Shown: piece after piece, positions 1 through 58,545 of the stretch
Layout: each line of letters begins with the position of its first letter
How positions within the stretch are numbered: position 1 is the first letter of the stretch
Source of the DNA: Bacteroidales bacterium
GTDB taxonomy: Bacteria > Bacteroidota > Bacteroidia > Bacteroidales > BM520
Length of the DNA: 64,000 nt
Direction: 5' to 3'
Assembly: GCA_016285515.1 (NCBI GenBank)
Contig: JAEEQW010000014.1
Location: 1-64,000 of the forward strand
Notes under the pieces: model-generated
The model's database searches: none
Told to the model about the DNA's origin: nothing
Seen by the model: the letters and a program-made list of their open reading frames with translations, nothing else
Translations under genes and position numbers: made by a program

Positions 1-810
1 CTGACGAGTGGTGTGCTGGCTTACAATCCTGTTAGCGGAAACCTATACGGTTGCAATAGATATTCAAATAATGCGACATTATACAGCATAAACCTTTCGA
101 CAGGGACTGAAACGGCAGTTGCAAACATAAACAGCAATTACCAAACATTATGCATTGCATTTGACCGGAATGGGAGTTGTTACATTTTGGATGTTGCGGG
201 AAACATCAAGCCATTTAATATCGAAACCGGCAGTATCGGAAACCCCATCTATACAATTCCTGGATTTATGGTCAACTATGGCGATTCAAATGCCATGACA
301 TGCGATTTCGAGACCAACACCCTCTATTGCACTTCAGTCGATATGGAAGATAACAAAACCCAGTTGTATTCATTTAATCTTGACAGCGGCACATTCAGTT
401 ATTTAGGCAAATTCCCTATTTTTTGCAACGCACTTGCAATCACATCCTCTATCGGCTGGATGAACGTGGAACCTGTATTCGGCGTGGTTGAGGTTGGTGA
501 AAGCACAACAGTGGCAATGCGGCTCAATGGTGGATGGGCGCAATCAGGCACATTCAATGCCACCTGTTCAATCGTCAACAACGCTACAGATGCAGTCGAA
601 ATCCCAGTCACGATGACCATTGCACAGGAAAAAATCCCTGGGGACGTCAACCTTGACGGCATAGTGAACGTTATCGACATACAGACAGCAGTGGCCTATA
701 TCTGCGGAGGCAATCCTTCAACCTTCGATTTCGACAATGCCGACATCAACGGTGACGGCACTGTCAACATCCTTGACGTGATGCAAATTGTAAACATTAT
801 TTTTTTATAA
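1..810 (+). CDS. Secreted protein with C-terminal dockerin-like pair (5' partial)
   Basis: The reading frame is open to the left edge, so only the C-terminal ~270 residues are visible and the GTG at 13 is not a trusted start. The first ~150 residues have the repetitive 'LYxxNxxTG' look of a beta-propeller or YncE-like repeat region. Next comes a beta-sandwich segment (about 155-210, 'WMNVEPVFGVVEVGES') of the kind found in Bacteroidota secreted proteins. The last ~55 residues form a dockerin-like pair of calcium-loop repeats (GDVNLDGIVNVIDI and ADINGDGTVNILDV), and the protein stops right after VNIIFL. There is no T9SS tail. Function unknown; probably exported or surface associated. Confidence 0.8.
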   Translation: MTSGVLAYNPVSGNLYGCNRYSNNATLYSINLSTGTETAVANINSNYQTLCIAFDRNGSCYILDVAGNIKPFNIETGSIGNPIYTIPGFMVNYGDSNAMTCDFETNTLYCTSVDMEDNKTQLYSFNLDSGTFSYLGKFPIFCNALAITSSIGWMNVEPVFGVVEVGESTTVAMRLNGGWAQSGTFNATCSIVNNATDAVEIPVTMTIAQEKIPGDVNLDGIVNVIDIQTAVAYICGGNPSTFDFDNADINGDGTVNILDVMQIVNIIFL

Positions 811-4344: not shown

Positions 4345-4349
4345 ATATG

Positions 4350-7482: not shown

Positions 7483-7510
7483 TTGTTATTGTATTCGTTG
7501 AAAAACGTTG

Positions 7511-7518: not shown

Positions 7519-7531
7519 GTTATATTATTCA

Positions 7532-7539
7532 TATTTTTG
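7532..7539 (+). promoter_or_regulatory. -7 element of DUF2461 gene
   Basis: TATTTTTG, 33 bases upstream of the ATG at 7573. A TTG at 7508-7510, 21 bases before it, is a plausible -33 element. Confidence 0.55.
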
Positions 7540-7572
7540 CAAAATGAATCTGAAACGTAAAAAAGGATAATC

Positions 7573-8262
7573 ATGAAAGCAAAATATGATGCAACAATGG
7601 CAGACCTTCTTCAATTCTATGCCGATCTGGCAGTTAACAACAACAAACCATGGTTCGACAAACATAAAGACTTGTATCTGAGTGTGAAGGAATTCAAGGA
7701 TAATCTTGCAATGGAGATTTATCAGGGCTTGCAGCAGTTTGACAAAGACTTGACAGGTCTCAGCATCAAAGACATCACATATCGCATTTATCAGGATTTG
7801 CGTTTCCATGACAGACCTCCGTACAAATCGTGGGTTGGAATATATGTCGCAAAAAAAGGCAAAAACTCGCCATACGCCGGATATTATCTTCATATCGAGC
7901 CATGTGAAAATCGATATTTTTTATGCTCAGGACTATACAGGGACGACAAACTGCTGCTGAAAAGCGTGCGTGAAGACATTCTTGTAAACGGCAAGGAGTT
8001 TGACAGGACTATAAAGGTCGGAAAAGGCTGGGAAATAGACTGGGATGGTGCATTGAAACGTGTTCCAAACGAATATCCGTCAGATGACAAATATTCAGAT
8101 TATTTCAAGCTGAAACACTTTTTGGTCATAAAAGAAATAGACGAGGATTATTTGCTTGCGCCGAACCTTGCATCGCGTGTATGCAACGATTTCAAAGCAA
8201 CACACTCATTTGTGAAAATGCTTAACAATGCCGTGGACTTCGCATTGGAGGAATGGAATTAA
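7573..8262 (+). CDS. DUF2461 family protein
   Basis: A 229-residue protein matching the DUF2461 / TIGR02453 pattern: an N-terminal 'FYADLAVNNNKPWFDKHKD', a central 'DITYRIYQDLRFHDRPPYKS' containing the conserved R-F-x-x-D-x-x-P-Y-K motif, and 'YAGYYLHIEPCENRYFLCSG'. The family is widespread and cytosolic, and its biochemical role is not established. It is followed 51 bases later by bcp and the two may be cotranscribed. Confidence 0.9.
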   Translation: MKAKYDATMADLLQFYADLAVNNNKPWFDKHKDLYLSVKEFKDNLAMEIYQGLQQFDKDLTGLSIKDITYRIYQDLRFHDRPPYKSWVGIYVAKKGKNSPYAGYYLHIEPCENRYFLCSGLYRDDKLLLKSVREDILVNGKEFDRTIKVGKGWEIDWDGALKRVPNEYPSDDKYSDYFKLKHFLVIKEIDEDYLLAPNLASRVCNDFKATHSFVKMLNNAVDFALEEWN

Positions 8263-23804: not shown

Positions 23805-26630
23805 ATGACCAAGAAAATTACATTACTCGCAGTGTTGCTCATGCTTTCACTGACATCATTTGACCTGATGGCGAACAAATACGCCGTCTATTTTACCGAC
23901 AAAAACAACTCTCCTTACAGCATTAACTATCCTGAGGAATTTCTCTCGCAACGTTCAATAGCTCGCAGAGCAAGATTTGGCATTGCAGTCAACACACAGG
24001 ATCTGCCTGTAAATCCATCATACGTACAGCAGGTCACATCACTTGGTGCGACACTGATTCACACCAGTCGCTGGCTCAACTGTGCCATTGTTTCCTGCAC
24101 TCAAAATGTAGCAAACCAAATTGCAGGACTTGACTTTGTTTCTGAAGTCGTTTATGTCGCACCGGCCAATTCCAAAGAGCCGTCAAAGTTTGCGAACAAA
24201 TTGGATTCTCAGATAAAGCCGTTGGAAAAAGGCGCAAAAACTGACTATAACTATGGCAATGCATACGGGCAGATATCCCAGATAAATGGTATTCCTGTTC
24301 ACCAGCAGGGATATACCGGTCAGGGTGTTCTGATAGCAATTCTCGATGGTGGCTTCAACAATGCCAACAATGTTTCTGCCATGAGCCATATCTATAATGA
24401 AGGAAGATTGCTTTACACACAGGATGTGGTAAATCCGGGTGGGAGTGTTTATGCTTCCAACACAAGCAATCACGGTACAAATGTATTTTCTTGTATCGGT
24501 GCAAAATTACCCGGACAGATGGTTGGAACTGCTCCTGACGCAGAGTTTGCTCTTATCAGAACTGAAGATGGGGATACAGAATACCTGATAGAATGTTACT
24601 ACTGGGTAGTAGGCGCGGAGGCAGCCGACAGCATAGGGGCAGATCTTATAACCTCTTCATTGGGATATCAGTCATTCGATGATTCATCAATGGATTTCAC
24701 TCACGAAGACCTTGACGGTGAAACAACCCCTTCAAGTATTGGTGCCATGGCAGCAGTCGCAAGAGGAATTTTCGTTTCCGTCAGTGCTGGTAATACAGGC
24801 GATCAATCATTCCCATGGGTTTCAACGCCTTCAGATCCAACATCAGTTCTCTGCGTAGGCGCCTGCACTTCCTCCGGAAGCATCGCATACTTCAGCTCAA
24901 TAGGCCCTAATGGCGCCGGTGACCCTAAACCGGACGTACTGGCACTCGGCTACAACAGCACAGTCATCACGCCTTCAGGCAATGTATCAACAGCCAGCGG
25001 TACTTCTTTTGCATGTCCTATCACTTCAGGCATGATAGCATGTCTGCTTCAGGCGAATCCTTCAGTGACTCCAGAAGAAGTCCTGAACATCGTTAATGCA
25101 ACCGGCAACAGATACCCAGTCCATGACAATGCTTACGGATGGGGCATTCCTGATTATGCAGAAGCTCTCCAAGGTGTTCTCGCTATCGGCGACCTCAAAT
25201 TCAAGGGAATGGTAATACATGATGAATCAGGCAACAACGACGGTTACCTTAACCCTGGTGAAACTGCAAGCGTTGACGTTATAATCCTCAACAAAACCGA
25301 CAATGTGGTTTCCGATATCGTACTTTCTTTCGCAACAACAGATCCTTTCATAACACTGGATTCCGAGCCAATCGAGCTTGCCGACTTCACTGCCAACGAA
25401 ACACGTACCATTCCGAACGCATTTACAGTAACTCTTTCCGAAGACGCTATGCCTAAGTACTCTGCAAAAGTGGTAGGCACAATAGAATGCAACACCGGAA
25501 ACATAGTTTCCAATCTCGAAATAATCGCATATAATCCGTATCTCGTTCTCTATGCTACCGCCATAATCAATGATGACAACGGCGACAATATTCTTGACCC
25601 GGGTGAAACAGCCGACATGTATGTATATGTCCTCAATGAAGGCAACAGACCAGCAGTTAGTATGTATGGTGCGCTCTCATCCACTTCCGATCTGATTACA
25701 ATCAACACACCGTCAAAACTTTATGGTACAATTGCAGGTGACAATTTCCGGTATTCTTCTTTCAATATAACCTTAAGTGAAGATGCCGACCCATCAACCC
25801 TCGACCTTCCTTTCAACTTGGCATTGAACGGTTCAAACTATTCACAAAACATTGAATTCTCATTCCAAAACACCTGCAACATCATATTCAATCTTCACGA
25901 TTCTTACGGGGACGGCTGGAACGGTGCTAATTTAATTGCAACTTTCAGCGATAGCAGTCCATCACAGACTATGACCATAGCTTCAGGAAGTTCAGCAACA
26001 TATACGGTGGGCGTATCAACAGGAACAACTGTGACACTTACCTGGCAGTCAGGCAGTTGGGATTCAGAATGTTCATTCGACGTGACATACGAAGACGGCA
26101 CACAAATATATTCCATAAGTCATCCGTCTTCAGGTGTGATTACATCATTTGTCGTTTCATGCAGCGGAGGAAATCTTCCTGTTTACTGTCTTGCACCTGT
26201 AAATATTGATTCTGAACTCGGTGGCGACTACATCACTCTCACATGGGAGGCTCCTGAAGATGCAACTCCAAGCTACTATCTGATATTTAGGGATGGCGTG
26301 AACATTGATTTGGTTTACGGAACGACATATACAGATGAAGGACTTGATCCTGGGATTTACTGTTATTCAATTGAAGCTGATTATTCCGATGGCTGCCGTT
26401 CAGAACTCACCGAAGAAGTCTGCGTTGACCTGTATATTACTGGTATCATGGGCGATGCTGACAACAACGGAATCGTAAACGTAAGCGATTTAATGAGTAT
26501 GGTTAGTTATATCCTTGAAAGTGACCCGCATCCGTTCATCTTCAGCAACGCTGATGTCAATATTGATGGTGTAATTAATGTGTTTGACATCATCAAAACT
26601 GTAAACATTATTTTCAATAACGGCAAGTAA
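23805..26630 (+). CDS. S8 subtilisin-like protease with C-terminal dockerin-like pair
   Basis: A 941-residue exported serine protease. Signal peptide is about residues 1-23. The catalytic triad is readable: Asp181 (ILDGG), His223 (NHGTN) and Ser401 (SGTSFA). After the protease domain (to ~460) come two CARDB-like beta domains (~465-690), a 'DSYGDGWNG' domain (~700-790), a fibronectin-III-like domain (~800-880), and a final dockerin-like pair (GDADNNGIVNVSD; ADVNIDGVINVFD) that ends three residues after VNIIFN. There is no T9SS tail, unlike its tandem paralogue two bases downstream. Confidence 0.93.
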   Translation: MTKKITLLAVLLMLSLTSFDLMANKYAVYFTDKNNSPYSINYPEEFLSQRSIARRARFGIAVNTQDLPVNPSYVQQVTSLGATLIHTSRWLNCAIVSCTQNVANQIAGLDFVSEVVYVAPANSKEPSKFANKLDSQIKPLEKGAKTDYNYGNAYGQISQINGIPVHQQGYTGQGVLIAILDGGFNNANNVSAMSHIYNEGRLLYTQDVVNPGGSVYASNTSNHGTNVFSCIGAKLPGQMVGTAPDAEFALIRTEDGDTEYLIECYYWVVGAEAADSIGADLITSSLGYQSFDDSSMDFTHEDLDGETTPSSIGAMAAVARGIFVSVSAGNTGDQSFPWVSTPSDPTSVLCVGACTSSGSIAYFSSIGPNGAGDPKPDVLALGYNSTVITPSGNVSTASGTSFACPITSGMIACLLQANPSVTPEEVLNIVNATGNRYPVHDNAYGWGIPDYAEALQGVLAIGDLKFKGMVIHDESGNNDGYLNPGETASVDVIILNKTDNVVSDIVLSFATTDPFITLDSEPIELADFTANETRTIPNAFTVTLSEDAMPKYSAKVVGTIECNTGNIVSNLEIIAYNPYLVLYATAIINDDNGDNILDPGETADMYVYVLNEGNRPAVSMYGALSSTSDLITINTPSKLYGTIAGDNFRYSSFNITLSEDADPSTLDLPFNLALNGSNYSQNIEFSFQNTCNIIFNLHDSYGDGWNGANLIATFSDSSPSQTMTIASGSSATYTVGVSTGTTVTLTWQSGSWDSECSFDVTYEDGTQIYSISHPSSGVITSFVVSCSGGNLPVYCLAPVNIDSELGGDYITLTWEAPEDATPSYYLIFRDGVNIDLVYGTTYTDEGLDPGIYCYSIEADYSDGCRSELTEEVCVDLYITGIMGDADNNGIVNVSDLMSMVSYILESDPHPFIFSNADVNIDGVINVFDIIKTVNIIFNNGK

Positions 26631-26632
26631 TC

Positions 26633-28312
26633 ATGAGAAGGGTTCTTTTTCCGTTATTGCTTTTGCTTTTTGCAGCAAATTTCATCTGCAATGCCCAGAC
26701 AAAAAAGGCCATCATGGAGGATTCCGTGCTGGATGCACCACAATATGCAGTGTATTTCACAGACAAGAACGGCACTCCTTACAGCGTTGACAATCCACTT
26801 GAGTTTCTTTCGCAAAGAGCTTTGGACAGACGTGCAATGCGAGGAATGGCTGTTAATGAAGACGACCTGCCAGTAAGTCCGACATACGTTGCCGGACTTA
26901 CCGCCACAGGCGCTTTCGTGAAATGGACAAGCCGATGGGGTAATCTTGCAATAGTATGTGCAACCGACAATGTCATCCAGCAGATCAGTGAATTGCCGTA
27001 CGTGGATTCGATAGTTTATATCAAACCTTCACTTGACAAGATTCAGACACAGAGTCATAACAACTCAAAATGGGACAATGAGTTTTATCAAGAATATTCT
27101 GGTGGAAACAACAAAGTTGATTACGGTGCTGCGTCAGCTCAGATAGAACAAATTAACGGTGTGCTCGTCCACGATGCCGGTTATCGGGGTGAGGGCATAC
27201 TTATAGCGGTCATTGACGCCGGATTCAGAAACCTAAATCAGATTCCTGAATTTCAGCCGCTTTTCGAGTCCGGCAGGGTAGTGTTTGAAAAGGACATCGT
27301 TGAAATAGGCGGCAATATCTACAGTGGCTCAAGCCATACTCACGGTACTGCAGTAACTTCAACCATGGCAGTCAACAGTCCGGGCTCCTTTGTCGGCACA
27401 GCTCCGGATGCCTCATACGCCTTTATCAGAACCGAAGACGGTGCGACTGAATATCTTGTCGAAGAATACAACTGGATAGTAGGTGCCGAAATGGCTGACA
27501 GCATCGGAGCTGACATCGTCAACTCATCACTCGGCTATTCCACTTTTGACGACCCTAACATGCAAATCCCTTATTCACAGATGGACGGCAATACTTGCAT
27601 TTCATCAATAGCTGTAAAACGGCTCACAGAACGCGGTGTTCATGTGGTGGTCAGTGCCGGGAACTCCAATGGTGACGAGGAATGGCCATGGATTGGAACT
27701 CCTGCCGATGCAGTCGAAGGCATGGCAATTGCTGCCGTTGACCCTCAAGGGAATATAGCAAGTTTCAGCTCCCTCGGTCCAAATGGCGCCGGGGATCCAA
27801 AGCCTAATGTGGCCGCATGTGGTCTGTACTGCACCGTTATCAATGCAAACGGCACAATCGAATATTCCGCCGGAACTTCCATATCAAGTCCTATCACCTG
27901 CGGCATGGTGGCATGTCTCATCCAGGCTTCTCCTATGACAACACCCGCAGAAATGATGGACATTGTCCAACAACACGCCGACAGATATCCCAATACAAGC
28001 ATCTATTATGGTTATGGAATCCCTGATTTCGGCGCATCTTTAAATGAACTTGATGGGATAAATGATAAAGAAAACCTGTCTTTCACTCGAATATATCCCA
28101 ACCCTTCGGATGATGAAATCAATGTTTCATGCAAGATGCAGCCTATCAGCACAATACGTGTCCTTGACATTGCCGGTCGCTGCATAAACGATATCTCAGT
28201 AAATGACTATTTCGCAAAAATGAGTGTGAAAAACATTCTATCAGGGATAGTTTTCATTGAAATCCGACTGGCTGACGGAAAAACTGAAACAAGAAAGATT
28301 ATTGTCAGATAA
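26633..28312 (+). CDS. S8 subtilisin-like protease with T9SS type A sorting tail
   Basis: A 559-residue paralogue of the preceding gene, starting 2 bases after its stop. Signal peptide about 1-21 (ending CNAQ). Triad: Asp195 (VIDAG), His237 (THGTA), Ser416 (GTSIS). The N-terminal propeptide region 'YAVYFTDKNGTPYSVDNP' is nearly the same as that of the neighbour (YAVYFTDKNNSPYSINYP). Instead of accessory domains and a dockerin it ends, from about residue 474, in a T9SS type A domain ('RIYPNPSDDEINV' to 'ETRKIIVR'). Probably exported by T9SS and surface anchored or released. Confidence 0.94.
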   Translation: MRRVLFPLLLLLFAANFICNAQTKKAIMEDSVLDAPQYAVYFTDKNGTPYSVDNPLEFLSQRALDRRAMRGMAVNEDDLPVSPTYVAGLTATGAFVKWTSRWGNLAIVCATDNVIQQISELPYVDSIVYIKPSLDKIQTQSHNNSKWDNEFYQEYSGGNNKVDYGAASAQIEQINGVLVHDAGYRGEGILIAVIDAGFRNLNQIPEFQPLFESGRVVFEKDIVEIGGNIYSGSSHTHGTAVTSTMAVNSPGSFVGTAPDASYAFIRTEDGATEYLVEEYNWIVGAEMADSIGADIVNSSLGYSTFDDPNMQIPYSQMDGNTCISSIAVKRLTERGVHVVVSAGNSNGDEEWPWIGTPADAVEGMAIAAVDPQGNIASFSSLGPNGAGDPKPNVAACGLYCTVINANGTIEYSAGTSISSPITCGMVACLIQASPMTTPAEMMDIVQQHADRYPNTSIYYGYGIPDFGASLNELDGINDKENLSFTRIYPNPSDDEINVSCKMQPISTIRVLDIAGRCINDISVNDYFAKMSVKNILSGIVFIEIRLADGKTETRKIIVR

Positions 28313-29362
28313 ATGAATTGTGAAACTTTTGGACGACATCTCGTCATAGAAACCTCAGGCGCTTCGCATGACCAATTCATGGAACTGGTCATAAAAAACT
28401 TTCCGAAAGGAATATATGTCGATTATAATCTGATTGACAGTGACTTGGCAAGACGTCGTCCACACAACGAATATGACACACAACGGAAAGAACGTGACAC
28501 ATATCACGTTCTTTTTGGTATTGACAAAGGTGTAACTGATGGGGAAAACATTGTCATACGCGTGAACAATGGCGAAATGGATGGTTCCAAATACGATTAT
28601 TTGAAAAACTTTTATCGCCCGTCCCATGCTGATTTCGTTTATGAAAAGAAATATGGAGAAACCATCCCTAACGGCGGTGGAAGATTTTCGGCACGTGAGA
28701 CAGTAACACGCGTAATTGCCGGTTCATTTGCAAAGATGCTGATAAACAGACTAATCCAAAAATCATCTAAAGATGAAGTTGAATTTCAGACATGGGCATA
28801 TTCTATTGGAGACATTGTTCAAACCACATTCAAACAGGATCTCAACAGTCAAATGAAAGCTCTGCTTATGGATATCAAAGCGCAGCGGGATTCCATAGGT
28901 GGGAGTGTAAGGTGCATAATAAAGAATTTCCCGGCTGGGGTAGGAGAGCCTGTGTTCAACAAACTGCATGCTGCTCTCGCGTATGGAATAATGAGCATTC
29001 CGGCGGCAAGAGCCTTTGAAATCGGAAGAGGGGTCGAAGCCGGCAAAATGAGAGGAAGCCAACACAATGACCCATATATTTCCGATGAAAGAACAAAGAC
29101 TGTAAGACCTGCAAAAAACGATGCCGGCGGCATCATCGGTGGCATTTCCACCGGTGAGGATATCATCCTGACGGTACATTTCAAACCAATTGCCTCAATA
29201 ATGCAACCACAGCATACTGTCAACAAGAAAGGGGAGAATGACATATTGCAAATCACTGGATATCACGATGTGTGCTGTGTCCCGCGTGCAGTGCCAGTTG
29301 TGGAGGCAATGGCTGCAATAGTGCTCGCTGACGAACTTTTAGGCAGTTGCCAAGATAAATGA
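28313..29362 (+). CDS. aroC: Chorismate synthase
   Basis: A 349-residue enzyme converting 5-enolpyruvylshikimate 3-phosphate to chorismate with reduced FMN. Family motifs include 'GRHLVIETSGASHD', 'RRPHNEYDTQRKERD', 'GGRFSARETVTRV' and 'GGIIGGISTGEDI'. The ATG begins on the base directly after the stop codon of the S8 protease gene, so translation may be coupled. In aroC 'GxSHG' the Gly is replaced here by Asp (GASHD), which I note as a variation. No other shikimate gene is in the window. Confidence 0.95.
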   Translation: MNCETFGRHLVIETSGASHDQFMELVIKNFPKGIYVDYNLIDSDLARRRPHNEYDTQRKERDTYHVLFGIDKGVTDGENIVIRVNNGEMDGSKYDYLKNFYRPSHADFVYEKKYGETIPNGGGRFSARETVTRVIAGSFAKMLINRLIQKSSKDEVEFQTWAYSIGDIVQTTFKQDLNSQMKALLMDIKAQRDSIGGSVRCIIKNFPAGVGEPVFNKLHAALAYGIMSIPAARAFEIGRGVEAGKMRGSQHNDPYISDERTKTVRPAKNDAGGIIGGISTGEDIILTVHFKPIASIMQPQHTVNKKGENDILQITGYHDVCCVPRAVPVVEAMAAIVLADELLGSCQDK

Positions 29363-48952: not shown

Positions 48953-51805
48953 TTAACGAGCAATAACAACCTTAGTTCTTACAACTTCATTGTCAGCAGT
49001 ATTCACATCAATGAAATACATGCCTGCAGGATAGCTGCTTGTTTCGATGTTAATTGTATTGCCGTTAACAGGTATTGTAGCAACTGCCTGTCCGAGGCTG
49101 TTGTAAATGACTATGCTTGTCATTTCCATACCATTGACAGTCAGTACATTGTTAGCAGGATTAGGATAAACCTTAATATCTGAGTTGAGATCATCACCAA
49201 TACCATCCGGTTCAATCGTTACTTCAACAGAGATAGGATCAGATTCACATTCATTTACGTAAACTGCAGTTACTTCATACAAATATGTACCAGCTGGACG
49301 ATTTGTATCAGTAAATGATTTGGACTTTGTATTCTTTATCATTTCACCGTCACGATAAACGAGATAGTGGTCGAAAGCAGGCATCTTAACGCCGCTTTCC
49401 TGCATTGGAGCAGCTGAGAAAGTGACATTTACTGGAGAAGTATTCATATTGTCAGCTATAGGATTCATAAAGAAGACATCACCCTTAGCATCTGCAAGAC
49501 CGCCCTGGATTGACCAGTTATAGTCAAGGTTAGCTTGTGAACCGCCGCCGGCTTCCCACATTGTTATCCATTCACCGCCAAAATACATCATATTGCCCTT
49601 ATAGTCAACTCTTGGACCTTCATCGCAGCCACCCGGATGACCTGTTGTTGTATTACATCTGTAACCAATCCACAATTCTTCTCTTGCATCAATTGTGACA
49701 GGAGTGTCAAGATATACAAGGTTCCATGCTTTAGTAACTATCTTACTGCCATCAACAGCCTGCTCATATACCAATTCAGATGGACCGGTCTCGTTACCGC
49801 CAACCCATACTCTGATATAGTAATCGCATTGGTCACCTGCAACACCAGGAACGAAGTTGACTGCGACAATATTCATACCGTTATATTCAGCGATATCCCC
49901 AGGTTCGAAACGATGGGCACAGCAGAAATCAGCTGCACTGCCTGTACCGATGGAATTGCTTCCAGCCTGGTCGGATGACCATGAAATCCATGTTGTAGGA
50001 GCAAAAGGATCGATAGGTTCTGACCATGTCAGCTTAACATTCTTCTTTGCAAGGATAGTGTATTCAAGGTTGTTTGCAGGCCAGCATGATGTAACTATTT
50101 CAGTTTCTGCACATGTTGGGAGTGATTCACAGCCATTGTCATAAAGTGCGGTTACACAAACATTGTATTCACCATCTTCGAAACCGTCAACGGAAAATTC
50201 ATATGTATTGCCATTAACACTGCCCATCAAATCACCGTTAACATAGATGTTATATGATTCAATGGCATCTCTGTAAGCTTTAACAGGAGCTGCTCTGAAG
50301 ATACGAGTATGTTCTGCTCTGAGGTCTTTAATGTTACCCTTTGTTTCATCATTTGCAGTAACAGGGCTATTCAAATAAAGCCCCTTGCCATCATTTTGAA
50401 CAAAACCCTGAATTGCCCAGTTATAGTCAAGTCCCAAGTCATATAAAGTCGTCCAACTTCCACCAAAATGCATAAGGTCGCCCTTGCCGGTGACAGCTGG
50501 TCCGTTGTCAACACCTGCAGGATATCCTGTAGTTGTATTGGCAAAATAACCGAACCACAATTCTTCAGCACCTGTGATTGATACAGGAGCATCAAGAGTT
50601 ATTTCATTCCATGCATTCAGTGTTATTTCTTCTGCAGGAACTTCCTGGTTAACAACCATAGTTCCAGGATTTGTGCCACTGGTACCGCCAACCCATACTC
50701 TAACTGTATATGTGCAAGCAGATTCATTAGGAACGAATCTAACCTTAGTGAGTTCATAGCCGCCATAAGGAGCTATTTCAGCAACCTGGAAACGGTGTGC
50801 CACTGAGAATGTTGTAGCAGAACCGGTACCAATACCATTGGTAAAGTCAGGGTCTCCAGCCCATGTAAGCCACTCTTCAGAACTTGGAATATAAGGAGCA
50901 GTCCATGAAATGTTCATTGCATCCAGAGTTGTTGAAACAGTAACTGTTTCAGGAGGTGTACATGTCATGCCCTGAGTTGTGAAATCGCCACAAATCTGAG
51001 GGGAGACACAACCGTCTGTCCATAAAGCTTCAACACAATAGTTGTATGTGGTTTCCATTTCAAGACCAGTATCTGTATATGTTTCAGCTACTGTGTTGCC
51101 TATCAGGGCACCATTACGATAAACATTGTATGATGCTACAGCACCACCTTTATCAATTGCCAATACTTTTTCTTCACCTTTGGCATTTACAACTGTAGTC
51201 TGAATGATGAAGTTATAGTTAAGGTCATTGGCGGTAAGAGTTGTCCAGCTACCTCCAAAACCTACAACATCACCTTTGCCGCTAACAGCAGGACCCGCAT
51301 CAGTACCTGCAGGATATTCTGCTGAACTTGGAGCGGCTACACCGTAACCGAACCAATAAGTCTGATTTGCCTCAATGGTAAATGGGCTTGTCAAAGTAAT
51401 GACATTCATTGATTGTAATGAAGGATTTGGAGCGCTCTGTGTCAACATTGGATTACCACTTGGATTTGCGCCTGTTCCTTTCCATACTTTCACAGTAAAT
51501 GTTCCACTCTGATAAGGAGTGAAAGCAACCTTTGTAACTTGCCAACCCACATAATCGCTGAGTTCACTTGCAAGAAACTTGTGCAGACAATTAAATTCTG
51601 TAGTACTGCCAAGACCGATACCTGAACTTAATTCAGTACCACTCCATGAAAGAATTTCCTCATCACCCTGCTGAGCAGGAGCAGTCCATGAAAGGACAAC
51701 TTTGTTCTTTGATGTAGTCCCCTGCAAGTCTCTTGGAGGATTACACTGGCTCATGCCTACAAAATAACATGCAACCAGAAATAAACTTAATAAAATTTTC
51801 TTCAT
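48953..51805 (-). CDS. Large T9SS surface protein with three tandem repeat domains
   Basis: A 950-residue exported protein with signal peptide ~1-18. Three copies of a ~200-residue domain (about 45-255, 300-500 and 620-800) each contain 'SGIGLGSTTEFNCLHKF'-like, 'YTVRVWVGG'-like and 'WFGYxxNTTTGYPAGxD' stretches ending in 'GGSWTTL...LDYNWxIQ'. They are separated by fibronectin-III-like modules ('NVxWxAP', 'GTYLYEVTAVYVNECES'). The end (from ~868, 'DIKVYPNPANNVLTVNG' to 'TKVVIAR') is a T9SS type A domain. Probably a cell-surface adhesin or ligand-binding protein. Confidence 0.9.
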   Translation of the reverse strand: MKKILLSLFLVACYFVGMSQCNPPRDLQGTTSKNKVVLSWTAPAQQGDEEILSWSGTELSSGIGLGSTTEFNCLHKFLASELSDYVGWQVTKVAFTPYQSGTFTVKVWKGTGANPSGNPMLTQSAPNPSLQSMNVITLTSPFTIEANQTYWFGYGVAAPSSAEYPAGTDAGPAVSGKGDVVGFGGSWTTLTANDLNYNFIIQTTVVNAKGEEKVLAIDKGGAVASYNVYRNGALIGNTVAETYTDTGLEMETTYNYCVEALWTDGCVSPQICGDFTTQGMTCTPPETVTVSTTLDAMNISWTAPYIPSSEEWLTWAGDPDFTNGIGTGSATTFSVAHRFQVAEIAPYGGYELTKVRFVPNESACTYTVRVWVGGTSGTNPGTMVVNQEVPAEEITLNAWNEITLDAPVSITGAEELWFGYFANTTTGYPAGVDNGPAVTGKGDLMHFGGSWTTLYDLGLDYNWAIQGFVQNDGKGLYLNSPVTANDETKGNIKDLRAEHTRIFRAAPVKAYRDAIESYNIYVNGDLMGSVNGNTYEFSVDGFEDGEYNVCVTALYDNGCESLPTCAETEIVTSCWPANNLEYTILAKKNVKLTWSEPIDPFAPTTWISWSSDQAGSNSIGTGSAADFCCAHRFEPGDIAEYNGMNIVAVNFVPGVAGDQCDYYIRVWVGGNETGPSELVYEQAVDGSKIVTKAWNLVYLDTPVTIDAREELWIGYRCNTTTGHPGGCDEGPRVDYKGNMMYFGGEWITMWEAGGGSQANLDYNWSIQGGLADAKGDVFFMNPIADNMNTSPVNVTFSAAPMQESGVKMPAFDHYLVYRDGEMIKNTKSKSFTDTNRPAGTYLYEVTAVYVNECESDPISVEVTIEPDGIGDDLNSDIKVYPNPANNVLTVNGMEMTSIVIYNSLGQAVATIPVNGNTINIETSSYPAGMYFIDVNTADNEVVRTKVVIAR

Positions 51806-51844: not shown

Positions 51845-54800
51845 CTATTGATTTATAATAAAATTAGCAATTGACATAACATCCATGACATCAATATTTC
51901 CATCAGAATTGAAATCTGCATTGTTATAATTAAACGGATTTGGCTCATTGCTCATAATATAAGCAACTACACTCGCAACATCAAGCACATTAACCACTCC
52001 GTCAGAATTGGCATCACCTTTCGTTCCGGATACAATAGCAGTAACGTTGACATCGTCTAGAACAACTCCGTAACCGTCATTGCATTCAGCCTCGAAAGCG
52101 ATATAATAGTTAGCAGTAACGTTTGGCAGTTCAATTATTCTGTTTTTCCAGGAAGCCACACTGTATTGGTAAGCGGCAAGCAGCTGCCATTCACCGTCTG
52201 TAGCATTTTTGTAATAAACTCTTAATCTGTCCTGATGACCATCGTGAACAGACTGGGCATGCCAGAAAGACAGAACAGGATCAACAGCACCATCAAGATT
52301 CATAACAGGAGAAACGAGTCTGACAACAGTCTCAGAACCGCTTATGAAAGCATTATAGCTGCCTGAATGAGCTTGCATAGGATGACTCTGCAAGCCACCG
52401 TGATTGGTAGTCCAAACGCCCTCACCGGAAACAATTTCCTGAGTCCAGCAATTAGGCAGATCCTCATCTTCAAAACCTTCATCATACGGATACGAACTGA
52501 CTGCAACATTACAGATATCAATAAACGGCTCAAATGCAGCAACGTATGAAAATTCGTAATTACCGGACAATGTTATGGTTGAATAGATTATTTCGCCAAA
52601 TGGCGCATTATCGCTCACATGAATTGTGAAAGCAGCAGTAGCGACTGCACCGTCATTATTGATGTCACCATATTCAACAGGATCAACTGTAATTACAGTT
52701 ACGTATGGATTTGATGTTGTATAAGTTCCATAGACGTTAAGAGCAGGATAGGAACCAATATTACGGAATGAGGCAGTGATGTTCAATGTCTTTCCAGGAA
52801 GCAGTTCACCTTCATAACCATAACTGACAAATTCAATCAAAGGTGCAGCCAAAGTAAGATCCATTTCATAACTCCATACCTCTCCGCCGCATGACATTGT
52901 CAATGTGCAAACTGCCACATGACCATCCGGAGCATCTCCTTCCACATGAACAGAAAGAATGTTTTCCAATACAACAGTATTATCTGATGCGATGTTTGCA
53001 ATCGTAGCCATTGGGATATCAAAAGTGACATACGGGTCGTCGGAAGATATTGAAACAGTAATATTTTCAGCATCTTCAACACCGACATTTCTGATAGTCA
53101 GGTCAAGTCCGTGAGATTCACCATAACTTAACACTTCTGAATTATAGCCCTGAAGAAGGAGGTATGGTCCTGATGGAGCTATACAGTTGATATTCTCGTA
53201 GATTGTTGTAGTGTTGAAACCAGTTACAGTAAGCAGAACTTCACCCGGAAGGAAGTCATTTTCGATTGAAACATAACCTGCTTCATCGGTTAATGCGGAA
53301 TAATATGCTCCGTCCTTGGAAATACATACGATAGCATTTTCAACCGGACCATCCTCGGTGGAGACCACTGTTTCGAAAGGAACACCAATAAGCATCAAAT
53401 CATTGGAAACAGAAATTTCAGCAGGAGTTGCTGTACGCAGTTGTACTGAAGCATCACCGAAAGTACACCATGTATGAGCTGTCTCAACATCGCTTGATGA
53501 TTGTGATTCAGTCAGCATCAGATTTAATGCATTAACAGCGACAGAGCCCCATGTAGTGCGCTGTTCCGTTGTATTGATACCGCTCTGGTCGGGATATTGG
53601 TTATAATCGAAGCCGCCTATAAGCACATCATAGAAATAGTCCTGACCACGCATTGGCGGCAGCCATGGCTGGCTGATGGAGGACATCCATACGACTATCG
53701 CTCCACCGTTTTCTTTTCTCAACCACGCTTCCGCAAAACAATCACCTGATCCGAACATTCCGTTGTCGCATGCAACTGAAGTGATAAAAGGCAATTTGGT
53801 TCCGTTAGAAAGGGAATTGACATTGGAATTGCTGAATCCTGTCGTTCCCCAACTGGTCTGTGAACCATGACCTGTGTATGCAATGGTGGATACACCGGCA
53901 TTGACTGCTGCTGTTACTCCGGATGCGCTTGCACTCGGGTCATATTCGGTATAAAATCCATCATAATTCAAAACAGGATTAAGTCTCTCATTATAAATCC
54001 TATTAACATGTGTATAGTCTATTTCACCGTCATCGCCAGGTCCCTGATTGGATGCAATGCCAAGCGCACTGCTGCGCCATGAATCTGTCATGTCAGGATT
54101 CTTTTCATAATTTATAGTCTTATTGACCTGAACTGTCAACTGAGAAACATTGTTGCATGAAAAACGTCCGACAATGATTTCAGGGAAATTATCGGTACCT
54201 ACCACACATCCGGCCTTTGGGTCAGCAGGCTCACCACTGACTGTGTTTGTCTTAACATCAGCCCAGTCACCTACGAGTTGGACATAGAGTATGTTCGGAT
54301 TTGCGTTATATTTCTGCTGAATTAAACTGGCAACGTTTGTACCGGTGGCAACCAATTCTTCCTCCACATTGTAACCCATTTCCTTTTTCCATGTGATATA
54401 TGGCTGAATTGCTTCCTGGTCACGGGATGTGTAGATGACAAGAATGTCACCGAACTGTGCAACCGGAAGATCCATACGACTCTTACTGTAATTGATGAAA
54501 AGACTTTGATACATGTCTTCCATCTCTCTTAAAGGAGTCAAATCAGTGTTATAAAGAGGATTAGTAGGAGTGTTGTTGTTTTCCAATAATTGAACAGTTA
54601 CATTGGAATATACACGTAATGTGTTAGTTGCAGCATTGTATCTGAAAGGATAAACACGTACTGCAGTACCTCTTACATCTCTGATAATATAAGGAGAATC
54701 AGCAGTTGCAAGATCTGAGGGATAGAATTCATCCACCAAAGATTCCGAAGCAATCTGGTAAGGAATGGTTTCAGGATTCTGGTTTCTGTAAATGACACCG

Positions 54801-55129
54801 CGGGATGGCACTAAAGGATAAGATAACTGATAATCCTTATATGTCGCATCAATTACATTGATGTCATAGTCCTTATCAGCTGCAATCTGAACGGATGCAC
54901 TGATGAAAGGAAGTTCTGCCCAGCCTTTCTTTTCAGTTACTGTTGTAACGTCAAAGACAATCTGGTTGAAAGTCACGCCATCAAAAGAAACTTCTTGTAT
55001 GTCCCATTTTCCAAGTTCAAATGAAACATTGTGCGAAGTTCCTGAAGATGTGTAATTAGTCTGGTATCCTTTTGCAAAGGAAATCAAACTTAAAACAATT
55101 AGCAGATTTGTAATAAGAAGTTTTTTCAT
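51845..55129 (-). CDS. Gingipain-like C25 cysteine protease with dockerin-like end (copy 1)
   Basis: A 1094-residue exported protease. Signal peptide ~1-20; a C25-type propeptide (~20-215, 'TVTEKKGWAELPFISASVQI'); catalytic domain with His421 in 'YTGHGSQTSWGTT' and Cys454 in 'SVACDNGMF'. Ig-like and CARDB-like modules follow, then a MAM/jelly-roll-like module ('CWTQEIVSGEGVWTTNHGG'), and a terminal dockerin-like pair (GDANSDGVVNVLDV; ADFNSDGNIDVMDV) ending at ANFIINQ. No T9SS tail. The DNA of the catalytic part is nearly the same as in copy 3 at 58586-62302. Confidence 0.94.
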   Translation of the reverse strand: MKKLLITNLLIVLSLISFAKGYQTNYTSSGTSHNVSFELGKWDIQEVSFDGVTFNQIVFDVTTVTEKKGWAELPFISASVQIAADKDYDINVIDATYKDYQLSYPLVPSRGVIYRNQNPETIPYQIASESLVDEFYPSDLATADSPYIIRDVRGTAVRVYPFRYNAATNTLRVYSNVTVQLLENNNTPTNPLYNTDLTPLREMEDMYQSLFINYSKSRMDLPVAQFGDILVIYTSRDQEAIQPYITWKKEMGYNVEEELVATGTNVASLIQQKYNANPNILYVQLVGDWADVKTNTVSGEPADPKAGCVVGTDNFPEIIVGRFSCNNVSQLTVQVNKTINYEKNPDMTDSWRSSALGIASNQGPGDDGEIDYTHVNRIYNERLNPVLNYDGFYTEYDPSASASGVTAAVNAGVSTIAYTGHGSQTSWGTTGFSNSNVNSLSNGTKLPFITSVACDNGMFGSGDCFAEAWLRKENGGAIVVWMSSISQPWLPPMRGQDYFYDVLIGGFDYNQYPDQSGINTTEQRTTWGSVAVNALNLMLTESQSSSDVETAHTWCTFGDASVQLRTATPAEISVSNDLMLIGVPFETVVSTEDGPVENAIVCISKDGAYYSALTDEAGYVSIENDFLPGEVLLTVTGFNTTTIYENINCIAPSGPYLLLQGYNSEVLSYGESHGLDLTIRNVGVEDAENITVSISSDDPYVTFDIPMATIANIASDNTVVLENILSVHVEGDAPDGHVAVCTLTMSCGGEVWSYEMDLTLAAPLIEFVSYGYEGELLPGKTLNITASFRNIGSYPALNVYGTYTTSNPYVTVITVDPVEYGDINNDGAVATAAFTIHVSDNAPFGEIIYSTITLSGNYEFSYVAAFEPFIDICNVAVSSYPYDEGFEDEDLPNCWTQEIVSGEGVWTTNHGGLQSHPMQAHSGSYNAFISGSETVVRLVSPVMNLDGAVDPVLSFWHAQSVHDGHQDRLRVYYKNATDGEWQLLAAYQYSVASWKNRIIELPNVTANYYIAFEAECNDGYGVVLDDVNVTAIVSGTKGDANSDGVVNVLDVASVVAYIMSNEPNPFNYNNADFNSDGNIDVMDVMSIANFIINQ
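53430..54470. repeat. Long near-identical DNA block, copy A
   Basis: This catalytic-domain region of C25 copy 1 matches 60600-61640 in C25 copy 3 at a constant offset of 7170 bases, with long runs of perfect identity and scattered substitutions and no indel noticed. Confidence 0.9.
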
Positions 55130-55158: not shown

Positions 55159-58100
55159 TTATTTATTCATAATTATGTTCACAATACCCATGACATCCAT
55201 AACATTAATCTCGCCATCACCATTCACATCGGCATTTGCGAAAATGAATATCTCATTAGAGCCATTAATGATATAGTTTACAACTGTCATAATATCGATT
55301 ACGTTTACAACGCCATTACCGTCAGCATCTCCTAACAAAGTGCCTAATTCACCAGTAATTTCAATATCGTCAAGGACAACGCCGTAACCACCATTGAGTT
55401 CAGCTTCGAAAGCTATATAATAATTTGATGAAGGGTTAGGAAGTTCTATTTCTCTCTGTTTCCAGTTTGCAATACTGAACTGATAAGTTGCCAAAAGCTG
55501 CCATTCACCATCAGTTGAGTTCTTATAATAAACACGGAGTTTGTCCTGATGTCCACCAAAAACTGACTGTGAATGCCAGAATGAGAGAACAGGATTTGTG
55601 ATATTAGAAAGGTCAAACATAGGTGTTACAAGTTTGACAGTAGTTGTGTCACCATAAACGAGAGCATTGTAACTTCCGCTGTGAGGATTATAAGGATGGT
55701 GCTGATAACCGCCACTCTGAACACTCCATTCAGCGTAACCGGAAACCACTTCCTGGTTCCAGCATCCTGCAAAATCTCCCTCTTCAAATCCTTCATTGTA
55801 AGGATATGCGCTTATTGCAACATTGCATATATCAATGAATGGGAAGAATTCACCATCGTATGAATAATTGTTGTCAGCAGTAATGGTAACCACCGAATTA
55901 ATGACTGTTCCGTAAGGAGCATTAGGGCTGACTGTAATTGAGAAAGCGCCAGTAGATGTTGCACCGGCAACAATTTCGCCGAATGACACAGGAGTAGTGG
56001 TGTTTACTGTAACGTATTCGCAGTCGGTGGTATATACACCGTAAGCATTATGTACGTCAGCATTACCATTATTTATGAAAGTAACAGTAAGGTTGAGAGT
56101 CTGACCTGGAAGGAGCTGACCTTCAATGCCATTGCTATAGACAGAAAGTGAAGGAGCAACTGTAAGGAAATAAAGACTGTATGTCCATGAGTCTTGACCG
56201 TCAGACATTGTTACAGTACAATTAACTTTGTGATTATCAGGAACAACAGGAGAAACGCTTACTGTAAATGCATCGGAAATGTTAACCACTGCACCAGGAG
56301 CGACATTACCATAGTTAGCGGTATTGTTTGTAAATGTGACATATTCATCTTCCGATGAAATGGTTGCCATAAGATTTACAGCTGTTTCAGAGCCCACGTT
56401 CTTAACTGCAAGACCGATAGTTCCGACTTCAGCATAATCAAACATACCGTCACCATTTGCATCGTTAATTGTGAACGAATTGCCAATCAAATAAGGGCCG
56501 TCAAGGGCTGCACACTCAACATCTTCGATGATAGGAGCGGTGTTAGGACGAGTGATGACAATTCTTGCCTGACCACCGGAAGTGATGACAGGGTTAAGAT
56601 TGACTGTAGCCAAACCGTCATTATCTGCAACAGCAGTTCCATAAAGCACACCGTCTTTGGAGATTGCCACAACAGAACCTGGAAGAGTTGTCACTTCATA
56701 GAAATCAACGCCTATAGGAACTATATCCATGTGTTCAGAGGTGTTGGTGGCTGGAACGCCGAAGTTATATGGCATGATGGAGCCGTCACCGAGGCAATGG
56801 TAAGACTGCCAGTAATAAAGAGGTGATGAGTGTGTACCGTAGTTGCCATCGTGAGCATAGCAGACTGCAAGGTTTCCAAGAAACACTATGGAATTGGTCG
56901 TATTGTATGTCTCTGTCATATCAATACCATCATAAACACCGGTAGAAGAGTTCTGTGGGGTAGGGGTCTGACTCATAACGTTGGTTGCGCCTACGCCCCA
57001 ATAGTAATCTTCATACCAATAAGTACTTGGACATGAACCTATATATGTATAAGCACCCTTATTCTGACCTCTAATCATGGCTTCTGCCAAACAAACACCG
57101 CTATAGCCGAAATCGGCAGCAAGGCAACAGTTACCTATTGCAAGAAAATATTTGTTGGCATTAGTAAGATTGTTGGCATCACTTACGCTGAAACTTGGTG
57201 AAGACCATCCGGTTTCACCACCATGAGCTGTATAATTGGCAACGGAAATACCAGTATTCATCCAGCTGTAGCAATTAGAATAAGATGTCAGATATTTGTG
57301 GACTCCTGTATAGCCATTATCAGCTGTGAAGTGATAAGCTTCCGCATAGTTGATGGCAGGTTGTCCAACCACTGGATTCCAATAACTGTCGGCACCAGCA
57401 ATAAGAAGTGCATCAGACAAATATGAAGGATCACATTCAAGTTTCTCGTAATTGAGAATCTTATTGATAAGGTTGGTCAGTTCAGCGCTTGTTGAAACAC
57501 ACATACGGCTACAGAACATTTCAGGGAAATAGTCGCCGTCAACGGAACTGTAATACAAATCTGTCACTTTTTGGGAAGAGCTTCCCGTTGTATTAGGAAT
57601 CTGTGGCGTATCTCCGACTAATACGAGGAAAGTAGGAGCCTGGTCGTTTTGAACACCAGTATTGTACTTGTCATAAACAAAATTTTTGATGTTGTTATAT
57701 GAAACACCTGTTTCAGATGTATAATGCACATCCATGTAGAAACCTTTCTCCAGTTTCCATTCGATCCATGGCGCAAGTTCCGATGCCCATGCATCAGGAG
57801 CTATGACAAGCATGTAAGTAGGAGTCTGATAAAGGTCAGGATGGTCATCATATACATCACGGTTGAACAGTTGTTTATATACAGGCTGGAAATAAATGCT
57901 GAAAGTTGACTCATAGAGCGACGTTGTAGCTTCTACATCAGCATTATCAAAAACAATCTCAAGTTCAATATTGTTTCTGACAATTATTCTATTTTCAGAA
58001 ACATCATAAACTACAGGGTTGACAGTAAGAGCACCGATGGTTACTCCACGCATGGTTCCCAACACCTGAACTGTAGCAATTTCTCTTTCATCAAAACCCT

Positions 58101-58545
58101 TCTGAGCGTATGCTGAAGCATTGTAAACGAATTTGATATCTTCCGGCTTTGCGTCCTTTTTTACTGAAGGCTGATGCGGATAAAGTGTCTCAATGCCATA
58201 ATCAGAAAGATTATACTGAGTTTCCGTATAATTTCTGACAACGACACGAGGGGTGGCACCCTGAGGGACAGCAATAAGCTGACGAGCTGCAGGAAGTTCT
58301 GGAGTACCATCCGCACCCGTAGGGTAGGTGTTAGGAATGGTGATTTGTGAAAAGTTCCCCTTTTCAGTGGAAATCAATGTGCTTTGGATAGCATCGAAAG
58401 AGAATGTCGCATCAAAGCTTTGCATTGTGGAGTTAGTGCATTCTTGTTTTGCACCAGTAGTGCTTAGCACAATAGTGCCCTTCTGTGCGTATGACATCAT
58501 GAAACAGAAAGCTGCCATTGATACTAATAATACTTTTTTCATCAT
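55159..58545 (-). CDS. Gingipain-like C25 cysteine protease with dockerin-like end (copy 2)
   Basis: A 1128-residue exported protein. Signal ~1-20; propeptide to ~240; catalytic domain with His441 in 'YTAHGGETGWSS' and a double cysteine Cys473-Cys474 in 'AIGNCCLAADFG', where alignment with copy 1 points to Cys474 as nucleophile. Its catalytic part is clearly diverged from copies 1 and 3, while the C-terminal MAM-like module ('CWNQEVVSGYAEWSVQSGG') and dockerin-like pair (GDADGNGVVNVIDI; ADVNGDGEINVMDV, ending VNIIMNK) resemble copy 1. Confidence 0.93.
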   Translation of the reverse strand: MMKKVLLVSMAAFCFMMSYAQKGTIVLSTTGAKQECTNSTMQSFDATFSFDAIQSTLISTEKGNFSQITIPNTYPTGADGTPELPAARQLIAVPQGATPRVVVRNYTETQYNLSDYGIETLYPHQPSVKKDAKPEDIKFVYNASAYAQKGFDEREIATVQVLGTMRGVTIGALTVNPVVYDVSENRIIVRNNIELEIVFDNADVEATTSLYESTFSIYFQPVYKQLFNRDVYDDHPDLYQTPTYMLVIAPDAWASELAPWIEWKLEKGFYMDVHYTSETGVSYNNIKNFVYDKYNTGVQNDQAPTFLVLVGDTPQIPNTTGSSSQKVTDLYYSSVDGDYFPEMFCSRMCVSTSAELTNLINKILNYEKLECDPSYLSDALLIAGADSYWNPVVGQPAINYAEAYHFTADNGYTGVHKYLTSYSNCYSWMNTGISVANYTAHGGETGWSSPSFSVSDANNLTNANKYFLAIGNCCLAADFGYSGVCLAEAMIRGQNKGAYTYIGSCPSTYWYEDYYWGVGATNVMSQTPTPQNSSTGVYDGIDMTETYNTTNSIVFLGNLAVCYAHDGNYGTHSSPLYYWQSYHCLGDGSIMPYNFGVPATNTSEHMDIVPIGVDFYEVTTLPGSVVAISKDGVLYGTAVADNDGLATVNLNPVITSGGQARIVITRPNTAPIIEDVECAALDGPYLIGNSFTINDANGDGMFDYAEVGTIGLAVKNVGSETAVNLMATISSEDEYVTFTNNTANYGNVAPGAVVNISDAFTVSVSPVVPDNHKVNCTVTMSDGQDSWTYSLYFLTVAPSLSVYSNGIEGQLLPGQTLNLTVTFINNGNADVHNAYGVYTTDCEYVTVNTTTPVSFGEIVAGATSTGAFSITVSPNAPYGTVINSVVTITADNNYSYDGEFFPFIDICNVAISAYPYNEGFEEGDFAGCWNQEVVSGYAEWSVQSGGYQHHPYNPHSGSYNALVYGDTTTVKLVTPMFDLSNITNPVLSFWHSQSVFGGHQDKLRVYYKNSTDGEWQLLATYQFSIANWKQREIELPNPSSNYYIAFEAELNGGYGVVLDDIEITGELGTLLGDADGNGVVNVIDIMTVVNYIINGSNEIFIFANADVNGDGEINVMDVMGIVNIIMNK

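What the first reader, a model, noticed from the sequence alone, without database searches (positions are those of the whole stretch)
23805..28312. Tandem S8 proteases with swapped C-terminal tags
Two S8 proteases, related from propeptide to active site and 2 bases apart, end differently: the first in CARDB, GDGWN, FN3 and dockerin modules, the second directly in a T9SS tail. This natural pair suggests that dockerin and T9SS tail are alternative solutions for placing the same enzyme type.
Basis: seen in the sequence. Interest (0 to 1): 0.65.

Follow-up and report, generated by a model that had tools for sequence, protein, structure and literature searches.

The report
Dockerin tags replacing T9SS secretion tails
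In one small group of uncultured gut Bacteroidales, secreted proteases that in close relatives carry a type IX secretion tail instead end in a dockerin plug, and the same genomes encode matching cohesin scaffolds that carry the secretion tail themselves, so one tagging system appears to have been swapped for another.

Summary
In detail: window 23805-26630 encodes an S8 protease ending in a type I dockerin; 2 bases on, 26633-28312 encodes a related S8 protease ending in a T9SS tail. The idea of alternative placement tags is supported, in a richer form. In five relatives the two proteases are one polypeptide, with a T9SS tail wherever the C-terminus is present (3 of 5). Only the window's genome and its sister species have them split, with the dockerin at the break. 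Only those two of five genus members searched have cohesins and dockerins (24/38 and 8/18 matches; 0/0 in the other three). Most cohesins sit in T9SS-tailed scaffoldin-like proteins. The swap recurs: C25 gingipain-type proteases (at least three changes) and the peptidylarginine deiminase end in dockerin here but in a T9SS tail in relatives. I read this as a protease-loaded, cellulosome-like complex in which dockerin took over from the T9SS tail. How tail-less enzymes cross the outer membrane is unknown; export bound to a T9SS-tailed scaffoldin is my leading, unproven guess. Closest precedent: Candidatus Stygibacter (Cloacimonadota).

The parts
23805..26630 (+). S8 subtilase ending in a type I dockerin (protein P0001, 941 aa)
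   Evidence: orthologue in G002
24318..25145 (+). Peptidase_S8 domain of protein 1 (residues 172-447)
   Evidence: E 4.7e-33
25173..26141 (+). linker with CARDB-like segments and a GDGWN segment (about residues 457-779), shared with the fused homologues
   Evidence: CARDB not confirmed by Pfam
26142..26450 (+). FN3-like segment next to the dockerin, absent from the fused homologues, shared with other dockerin proteins of this genome
26451..26591 (+). Dockerin_1 domain of protein 1
   Evidence: 31.5 bits on DNA search
26631..26632 (+). two-base gap between the genes; the break point relative to the fused homologues
26633..28312 (+). S8 subtilase ending in a type A T9SS tail (protein P0002, 559 aa)
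27188..28018 (+). Peptidase_S8 domain of protein 2 (residues 186-462)
   Evidence: E 5e-33
28091..28309 (+). T9SS type A sorting domain of protein 2
28313..29362 (+). aroC-like gene (named from memory of the family); a similar gene lies directly downstream of the fused protease in G001
268..810 (+). dockerin-terminal protein fragment, same genome-wide set
51845..55129 (-). gingipain-type C25 protease ending in a dockerin
55159..58545 (-). gingipain-type C25 protease ending in a dockerin
58586..62302 (-). gingipain-type C25 protease ending in a dockerin
62375..64000 (-). C-terminal part of a C25 protease with dockerin, short cohesin-like module and T9SS tail (continues beyond the window)
48953..51805 (-). 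T9SS-tailed protein next to the dockerin gingipains

Best explanation
This lineage has a cohesin-dockerin surface complex loaded mainly with proteases. Scaffoldin-like proteins carrying up to eight cohesins plus a T9SS tail are sent to the cell surface by the T9SS. Enzymes such as the first S8 protease end in a dockerin and are held by those cohesins, while the second S8 protease keeps its own T9SS tail. The T9SS tail is the older state; dockerin replaced it repeatedly in S8, C25 and deiminase genes of the window's genome and its sister species. The S8 pair most likely arose when a two-protease polypeptide with one T9SS tail was cut in two, the first half gaining an FN3-like plus dockerin cassette and the second half gaining its own signal peptide. 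Shown by sequence: the domains, the cohesins and scaffoldin tails, the presence/absence pattern and the tail exchange between relatives. Inferred: that these dockerins bind these cohesins, that the complex is on the surface, and that fission rather than fusion took place. Proposed only: tail-less enzymes cross the outer membrane already bound to a T9SS-tailed scaffoldin.
For: Own genome: 39 Dockerin_1 matches, 37 kept as distinct proteins, of which 28 end at the dockerin, 8 have dockerin, about 110 aa, then a T9SS tail, and 1 has it N-terminally. 24 cohesins: three large proteins with 8, 5 and 7 cohesins each end in a T9SS tail; a fourth has cohesin, dockerin and T9SS tail; a lipoprotein-like single cohesin directly follows an S8-dockerin gene about 4 kb from porV. 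PorV and two PorU copies are present. Genus: G000 and G002 have both modules; G001, G003 and G004 have neither (PF00963 agrees). S8 pair: fused in G001, G004, L143, L144 and L145, split with dockerin in G000 and G002. Both domains of the split pair fall with the matching domains of the fused proteins, support 100/99 and 99/95. The APQYAV junction motif is shared by the second split protein and three of five fused linkers. C25: of 51 frames, dockerin occurs only in G000/G002, and supported branches force at least 3 changes of the dockerin-end label. Deiminase: dockerin in G000 and G002, T9SS tail in G001, G119, G120 and G121.
Against: No binding or localisation data exist. The S8 tree puts the split pair as sister to the fused group, so topology alone does not say whether fission or fusion happened. 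Dockerin-free status is not absolute among fused relatives: G120 has 2 and G121 has 1 dockerin match, G119 none, and none of the three has a cohesin by profile A1. Family-mates G005-G007 have 1-2 weak PF00963 matches without dockerins. Not every paralogue swapped: one C25 (L207) and several C10 proteases in G000 keep T9SS tails. The lipoprotein-like cohesin could be periplasmic, which would allow part of the complex to stay inside. All genomes are draft assemblies with contig breaks.
Confidence: 0.72

Rival explanations
1. Dockerin-ended enzymes leave the cell by some other route (vesicles, lysis, or an unrecognised T9SS signal upstream of the dockerin) and are captured from outside by T9SS-anchored scaffoldins. 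The dockerin is then only a retention tag, and export is independent of the scaffoldin. (This shares the placement claim with the best explanation and differs in the export step.)
For: Same inventory of T9SS-tailed scaffoldins and dockerin-terminal enzymes. In Gram-positive cellulosomes enzymes are secreted separately and then captured (general knowledge).
Against: No alternative export signal was seen. Eight proteins keep both dockerin and T9SS tail, which suggests that the tail can supply export and that the 28 others lost it.
Confidence: 0.35
2. Dockerin-ended enzymes stay in the periplasm, held at the outer membrane by the single-cohesin lipoprotein, so dockerin and T9SS tail put the two S8 proteases in different compartments instead of the same one.
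For: A 178-aa cohesin with a lipobox-like N-terminus (by eye) lies directly downstream of an S8-dockerin gene and about 4 kb from porV.
Against: The dockerin set is rich in families whose relatives carry T9SS tails (C25, peptidylarginine deiminase, C10), and 20 of the 24 cohesins are on three T9SS-tailed proteins.
Confidence: 0.12
3. The dockerin itself is recognised by the T9SS as an unconventional sorting signal.
For: It occupies the position of the T9SS tail in relatives.
Against: The dockerin is a small helical calcium module unlike the beta-sandwich T9SS tail (general knowledge); dockerin content follows cohesin content across 119 genomes (29 both, 16 dockerin only, 10 cohesin only, 64 neither; Fisher p 1.5e-8, not corrected for relatedness); 8 proteins carry both dockerin and T9SS tail.
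Confidence: 0.05
4. Ordinary domain shuffling after gene duplication: the dockerin is a stable calcium module without a partner, and the contrast between the two S8 genes means nothing for placement.
For: 16 of 45 dockerin-positive genomes have no PF00963 match.
Against: Cohesins and dockerins appear together in the same two of five genus members; the exchange recurs in unrelated enzyme families; 11 of 11 genomes with 4 or more dockerins have a cohesin match.
Confidence: 0.08

Closest known systems
Candidatus Stygibacter (Cloacimonadota) cellulosome-like complex, PMC8542988 (abstract, passages and section 7 read)
   Same: Dockerin-ended S8 and C25 gingipain-like peptidases plus a 3,755-aa tandem-cohesin scaffoldin with a conserved C-terminal domain proposed to attach it to its own cell surface; protein degradation proposed.
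   Different: Different phylum; scaffoldin with CBM2/CBM3; it also has GH18 and GH57 enzymes. No comparison with tail-bearing orthologues was seen in the parts read. Here there are several scaffoldins, no CBM or GH found by Pfam in the proteins scanned, and a direct series of relatives with T9SS tail versus dockerin.
Cellulosome of Gram-positive anaerobes (Clostridium, Ruminococcus)
   Same: Multi-cohesin scaffoldins, dockerin-tagged enzymes, an adaptor-like protein with both modules.
   Different: Proteases instead of glycoside hydrolases; T9SS tails instead of SLH or sortase anchors; InlB-type repeats instead of CBMs.
Planctosome of Nemodlikiaceae (Planctomycetes), PMC6461901 (passages read)
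   Same: Proposed cohesin-dockerin complex for polypeptide degradation.
   Different: Other enzymes (M12B, M14) and another anchor (lamin tail domain); no T9SS mentioned in the passages.
T9SS-exported gingipains and peptidylarginine deiminase of Porphyromonas gingivalis (recalled; T9SS review PMC10202324 read in passages)
   Same: Same enzyme families (C25, PAD_porph).
   Different: There each enzyme has its own C-terminal T9SS domain (recalled); here most of these family members end in a dockerin.
Cohesins and dockerins counted in rumen Bacteroidetes bins, PMC6071333 (passages read)
   Same: Bins 129 and 136 show that cohesins and/or dockerins exist in rumen Bacteroidetes.
   Different: Read there as cellulosome potential; no T9SS link (T9SS and type IX occur 0 times) and no tail exchange in the passages read.

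Membership tests
Peptidase S8 (both proteins) | Subtilase domain over the curated cut-off | tested here: met
   115 bits each against 21.8
Peptidase S8 (both proteins) | Proteolytic activity | not testable with these tools
   triad-like motifs seen by eye only
Type I dockerin (protein 1) | Dockerin_1 over cut-off | tested here: met
   27.2 bits against 22.9
Type I dockerin (protein 1) | Candidate partner cohesin in the same genome | tested here: met
   24 cohesin matches in G000; PF00963 over cut-off; profile also hits PDB scaffoldin cohesin 5n5p, E 9.8e-8
Type I dockerin (protein 1) | Binds a cohesin | not testable with these tools
   needs a binding assay
T9SS type A cargo (protein 2) | TIGR04183/PF18962 domain at the C-terminus | tested here: met
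   29.8 bits against 23, residues 487-559 of 559
T9SS type A cargo (protein 2) | T9SS machinery in the genome | tested here: met
   PorV and two PorU over equivalog cut-offs; SprA and the motor were not searched
T9SS type A cargo (protein 1) | T9SS tail at the C-terminus | tested here: not met
   none at E<=0.1; none in the G002 orthologue by inspection
Cellulosome | Scaffoldin with several cohesins | tested here: met
   8, 5 and 7 cohesins
Cellulosome | Dockerin-tagged plant-polysaccharide hydrolases | tested here: not met
   no glycoside hydrolase listed among 30 of 37 dockerin proteins scanned; peptidases dominate
Cellulosome | Carbohydrate-binding module on the scaffoldin | tested here: not met
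   none listed by Pfam in the three large scaffoldins
Cellulosome | Cell-surface anchoring of the scaffoldin | tested here: inconclusive
   T9SS tails instead of SLH/sortase signals; location not measured
Stygibacter-type complex | Dockerin C25/S8 peptidases plus scaffoldin with a T9SS-type C-terminal domain | tested here: met
   criteria taken from PMC8542988 section 7

The most novel reading that the evidence does not exclude
The T9SS exports preassembled scaffoldin-enzyme complexes: dockerin-ended proteases with no T9SS signal of their own cross the outer membrane bound to cohesins of a T9SS-tailed scaffoldin, so dockerin works as a borrowed secretion signal, which made loss of individual T9SS tails possible across much of a secretome.
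Probability: 0.33. Interest if true: 0.87.

Novelty: new variant of a known kind. Interest (0 to 1): 0.7.

Why it matters
It gives a natural experiment inside one genus on how an enzyme is placed on a cell: the same gene families with a T9SS tail in relatives lacking cohesins, and with a dockerin where cohesins exist. It makes a concrete question testable: can the T9SS export a protein that has no signal of its own but is bound to one that has? It extends cellulosome-like assembly with T9SS-tailed scaffoldins to Bacteroidales, with proteases as the main recognisable cargo.

Tried and rejected
Truncation of a T9SS tail after the dockerin in protein 1: rejected; the G002 orthologue ends the same way and the gene is under purifying selection. 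Frameshift or assembly artefact splitting one gene: rejected; two genomes share the split, with a new signal-peptide-like start on the second half. Cellulose-degrading cellulosome: not supported by the enzyme content. Plain recent tandem duplication: rejected; the duplication predates the split/fused divergence. Direction of the S8 change from the tree alone: left open. C10 proteases as a one-to-one tail-swap case: not shown; dockerin-ended C10s lie among T9SS-tailed ones, but no direct orthologue with a T9SS tail in a dockerin-free relative was found. Structure prediction was not used: most relatives' sequences came from sources not listed as allowed for it. A first T9SS profile wrongly contained 8 reverse-strand rows and was rebuilt; the scaffoldin tails reported rest on TIGR04183/Pfam hits.

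Rows dropped before counts: from 39 dockerin matches, one overlapping second match in the same protein (C2:62819) and one 30-aa fragment (C25:154198). C25: 51 frames in the tree out of 64 matches; some regions in G002, G119, G120 and G121 were not fetched, and domains shorter than 250 aa were left out. Pfam was run on 30 of the 37 dockerin proteins (one of them only in its C-terminal part).
Full report
WHAT IS THERE. Two S8 proteases lie 2 bases apart at 23805-26630 and 26633-28312. The first ends in a type I dockerin, the second in a type A T9SS tail. They are 48% identical over their shared part.

THE GENOME AROUND IT. The window lies in a 2.58-Mb draft genome, 98% complete. Dockerin_1 gave 39 matches; I kept 37. 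Of these, 28 sit at the very C-terminus (1-14 residues follow the match), 8 are followed by about 110 residues and a T9SS tail, and 1 is N-terminal. TIGR04183 gave 77 matches at E<=0.1. Cohesins are present; a profile built from them, A1, finds 24: 8 and 5 in two adjacent large proteins, 7 in a protein of 3601 aa, 2 in a C10 protease cut by a contig end, 1 in a protein that also has InlB-type repeats, a dockerin and a T9SS tail, and 1 in a lipoprotein-like 178-aa protein. The three large proteins end in T9SS tails. The lipoprotein-like cohesin directly follows an S8-dockerin protease gene and is about 4 kb from porV; two PorU copies precede porV. A1 also hits the solved scaffoldin cohesin 5n5p, E 9.8e-8. 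The stretch between dockerin and T9SS tail in the 8 hybrid proteins, aligned with six counterparts from other genomes, resembles a shortened cohesin (profile comparison, probability 93.7%, E 2e-7, 87 columns).

WHAT THE DOCKERINS CARRY. In 30 of 37 dockerin proteins scanned with Pfam the recognisable enzymes are mostly peptidases: C25, C10, S8 and M14, plus a Porphyromonas-type peptidylarginine deiminase and one alpha/beta hydrolase. No glycoside hydrolase was listed. Three dockerin-ended C25 proteases and a C25-dockerin-T9SS hybrid form a cluster in this very window (51845 to past 64000, minus strand).

THE PAIR IN RELATIVES. S8 homologues are common in the order: 51 of 60 genomes had a match at E<=1e-20. 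Of the 26 single-domain homologues read from order members, 24 have 90-108 residues after the S8 domain, a length that fits a T9SS tail but was not scanned as such; the other two have 189 (G041) and 30 (G025). The double arrangement is narrower. In G001 one gene encodes S8-linker-S8-T9SS tail (1335 aa; Pfam). L143 and L145 have the same layout to a T9SS-like end by inspection; L144 and G004/L142 show it as far as their contigs reach, which is inside the second S8. G001 has a similar aroC-like gene directly downstream as the window does. In G002 the genes are split as in the window, with FN3-like and dockerin segments on the first. Two contigs of the same lengths in a named collection suggest that G002 is a Bacteroidales MAG from water buffalo abomasum and G004 one from a site called Sandtown. 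L148 differs: a double S8 without the long linker, and a separate S8. In a tree of 46 S8 domains, first domains of split and fused proteins group together (100/99), and so do second domains (99/95); within each, the split pair is sister to the fused set. The duplication therefore predates the difference, but direction is not settled by topology. The fused junction reads APQYAV in 3 of 5 proteins (G001, G004, L143) and so does the second split protein, shortly after its new N-terminus; with the C25 polarity below this makes fission the more likely direction.

PRESENCE AND ABSENCE. Among 119 Bacteroidales-order genomes, A1 found cohesins in 9 and PF00404 dockerins in 45. In the window's genus, G000 has 24 cohesin and 38 dockerin matches, G002 8 and 18, and G001, G003 and G004 none of either; G003 is only 74% complete. 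PF00963, more general, found 39 of 119: 29 genomes have both, 16 dockerin only, 10 cohesin only, 64 neither (Fisher p 1.5e-8, not corrected for relatedness). All 11 genomes with 4 or more dockerins have a cohesin match by A1 or PF00963. The fused relatives G119, G120 and G121 have no A1 cohesin and 0, 2 and 1 dockerin matches. In another cohesin-rich genome, G054, 10 of 15 sampled dockerins are C-terminal (57-60 residues from dockerin start to stop), and in G081 0 of 5 are, so terminal dockerins are not unique to this genus, nor universal.

THE SAME SWAP IN OTHER ENZYMES. I collected C25 proteins from eight genomes (64 matches; 51 frames analysed). Dockerins occur only in G000 and G002: 6 dockerin-ended and 3 dockerin-plus-T9SS frames. 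29 frames carry a detected T9SS tail without dockerin, 27 of them in the other six genomes. The dockerin-ended proteins lie in three different groups whose other members, from G001, G003, G004, G119 and G120, are T9SS-tailed where complete; the tree needs 4 changes for the dockerin-ended label and well-supported branches force at least 3 (quick tree, SH-aLRT only). Because the surrounding branches are T9SS-tailed, the T9SS tail is most simply ancestral. One C25 of the own genome (L207) keeps its T9SS tail like its relatives. The peptidylarginine deiminase ends in dockerin in G000 and G002 and in a T9SS tail in G001, G119, G120 and G121; G003 is broken and G004 has no match. For C10 proteases the picture is mixed: two tandem genes in G000 (C41) and G002 (C52) carry one T9SS tail and one dockerin, echoing the S8 pair, but no clean orthologue swap was found.

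HOW IT PROBABLY WORKS. T9SS-tailed scaffoldins reach the surface through the T9SS; dockerin-ended enzymes are held by their cohesins; the second S8 protease goes by its own tail. The review PMC9251779 (passages read) states that the SprA translocon transports folded proteins and describes piggyback import of complexes into peroxisomes, so co-export of a bound enzyme is conceivable, but nothing here shows it. Capture from outside after export by another route is about as likely.

LITERATURE. PMC8542988 (abstract, passages and section 7 read) describes a similar complex in Candidatus Stygibacter, including dockerin S8 and C25 peptidases and a scaffoldin with a C-terminal domain for surface attachment. 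PMC6461901 (passages) proposes the planctosome. [quoted passage not shown] PMC6071333 (passages) counts cohesins and dockerins in rumen Bacteroidetes bins; PMC10266427 (passages) reports dockerins in some Bacteroidota single-cell genomes. PMC6851124, PMC7480376 and PMC10202324 were also read in passages. Searches listed no paper whose title or abstract start describes replacement of T9SS tails by dockerins; most listed papers were seen only as listings, and most subscription journals are absent from the library.

VERDICT. Observation confirmed; interpretation supported in a modified form; new variant of a known kind; interest 0.7.

Noticed in passing
L206:898-4308 and 4312-8046 (G000 C19): Two adjacent proteins both score over the PorU (T9SS sortase) equivalog cut-off, next to porV. 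C25 frames that group with them in the tree suggest that G001 and G004 also have two; why two sortases is unclear.
   Followed up: partly
L069:4365-7493 (G000) and L217 / G002:C12: Apparent orthologous C10 proteases: the G000 copy ends in a dockerin, while the G002 copy runs into a cohesin at its contig end, a possible dockerin-to-cohesin exchange.
   Followed up: partly
L091:2373-5105 (G000 C45): A C10 protease that itself carries at least two cohesins, so an enzyme may double as a small scaffoldin; its nearest tree relatives end in dockerins.
   Followed up: partly
window 268-810; L074; L078: Very similar dockerin-ended proteins or fragments sit at the ends of three contigs, pointing to a repeated gene family that broke the assembly.
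   Followed up: no
L156 (G117), L159 (G083): In two other families the module right after the dockerin is itself detected as a cohesin (42 and 18 bits), which suggests dockerin-cohesin chains.
   Followed up: partly
NCBIfam NF045500 (Omp28_seleno); protein 1 residues 877-938: The C-terminal end of this model matches the dockerin region of protein 1 and of the C19 S8 protease, so some Omp28-type proteins elsewhere may end in dockerins.
   Followed up: no
G100 C2 and C23 (L160): Open frames of 8081 and 6522 residues with several cohesin matches in a genome with 49 dockerin matches.
   Followed up: no
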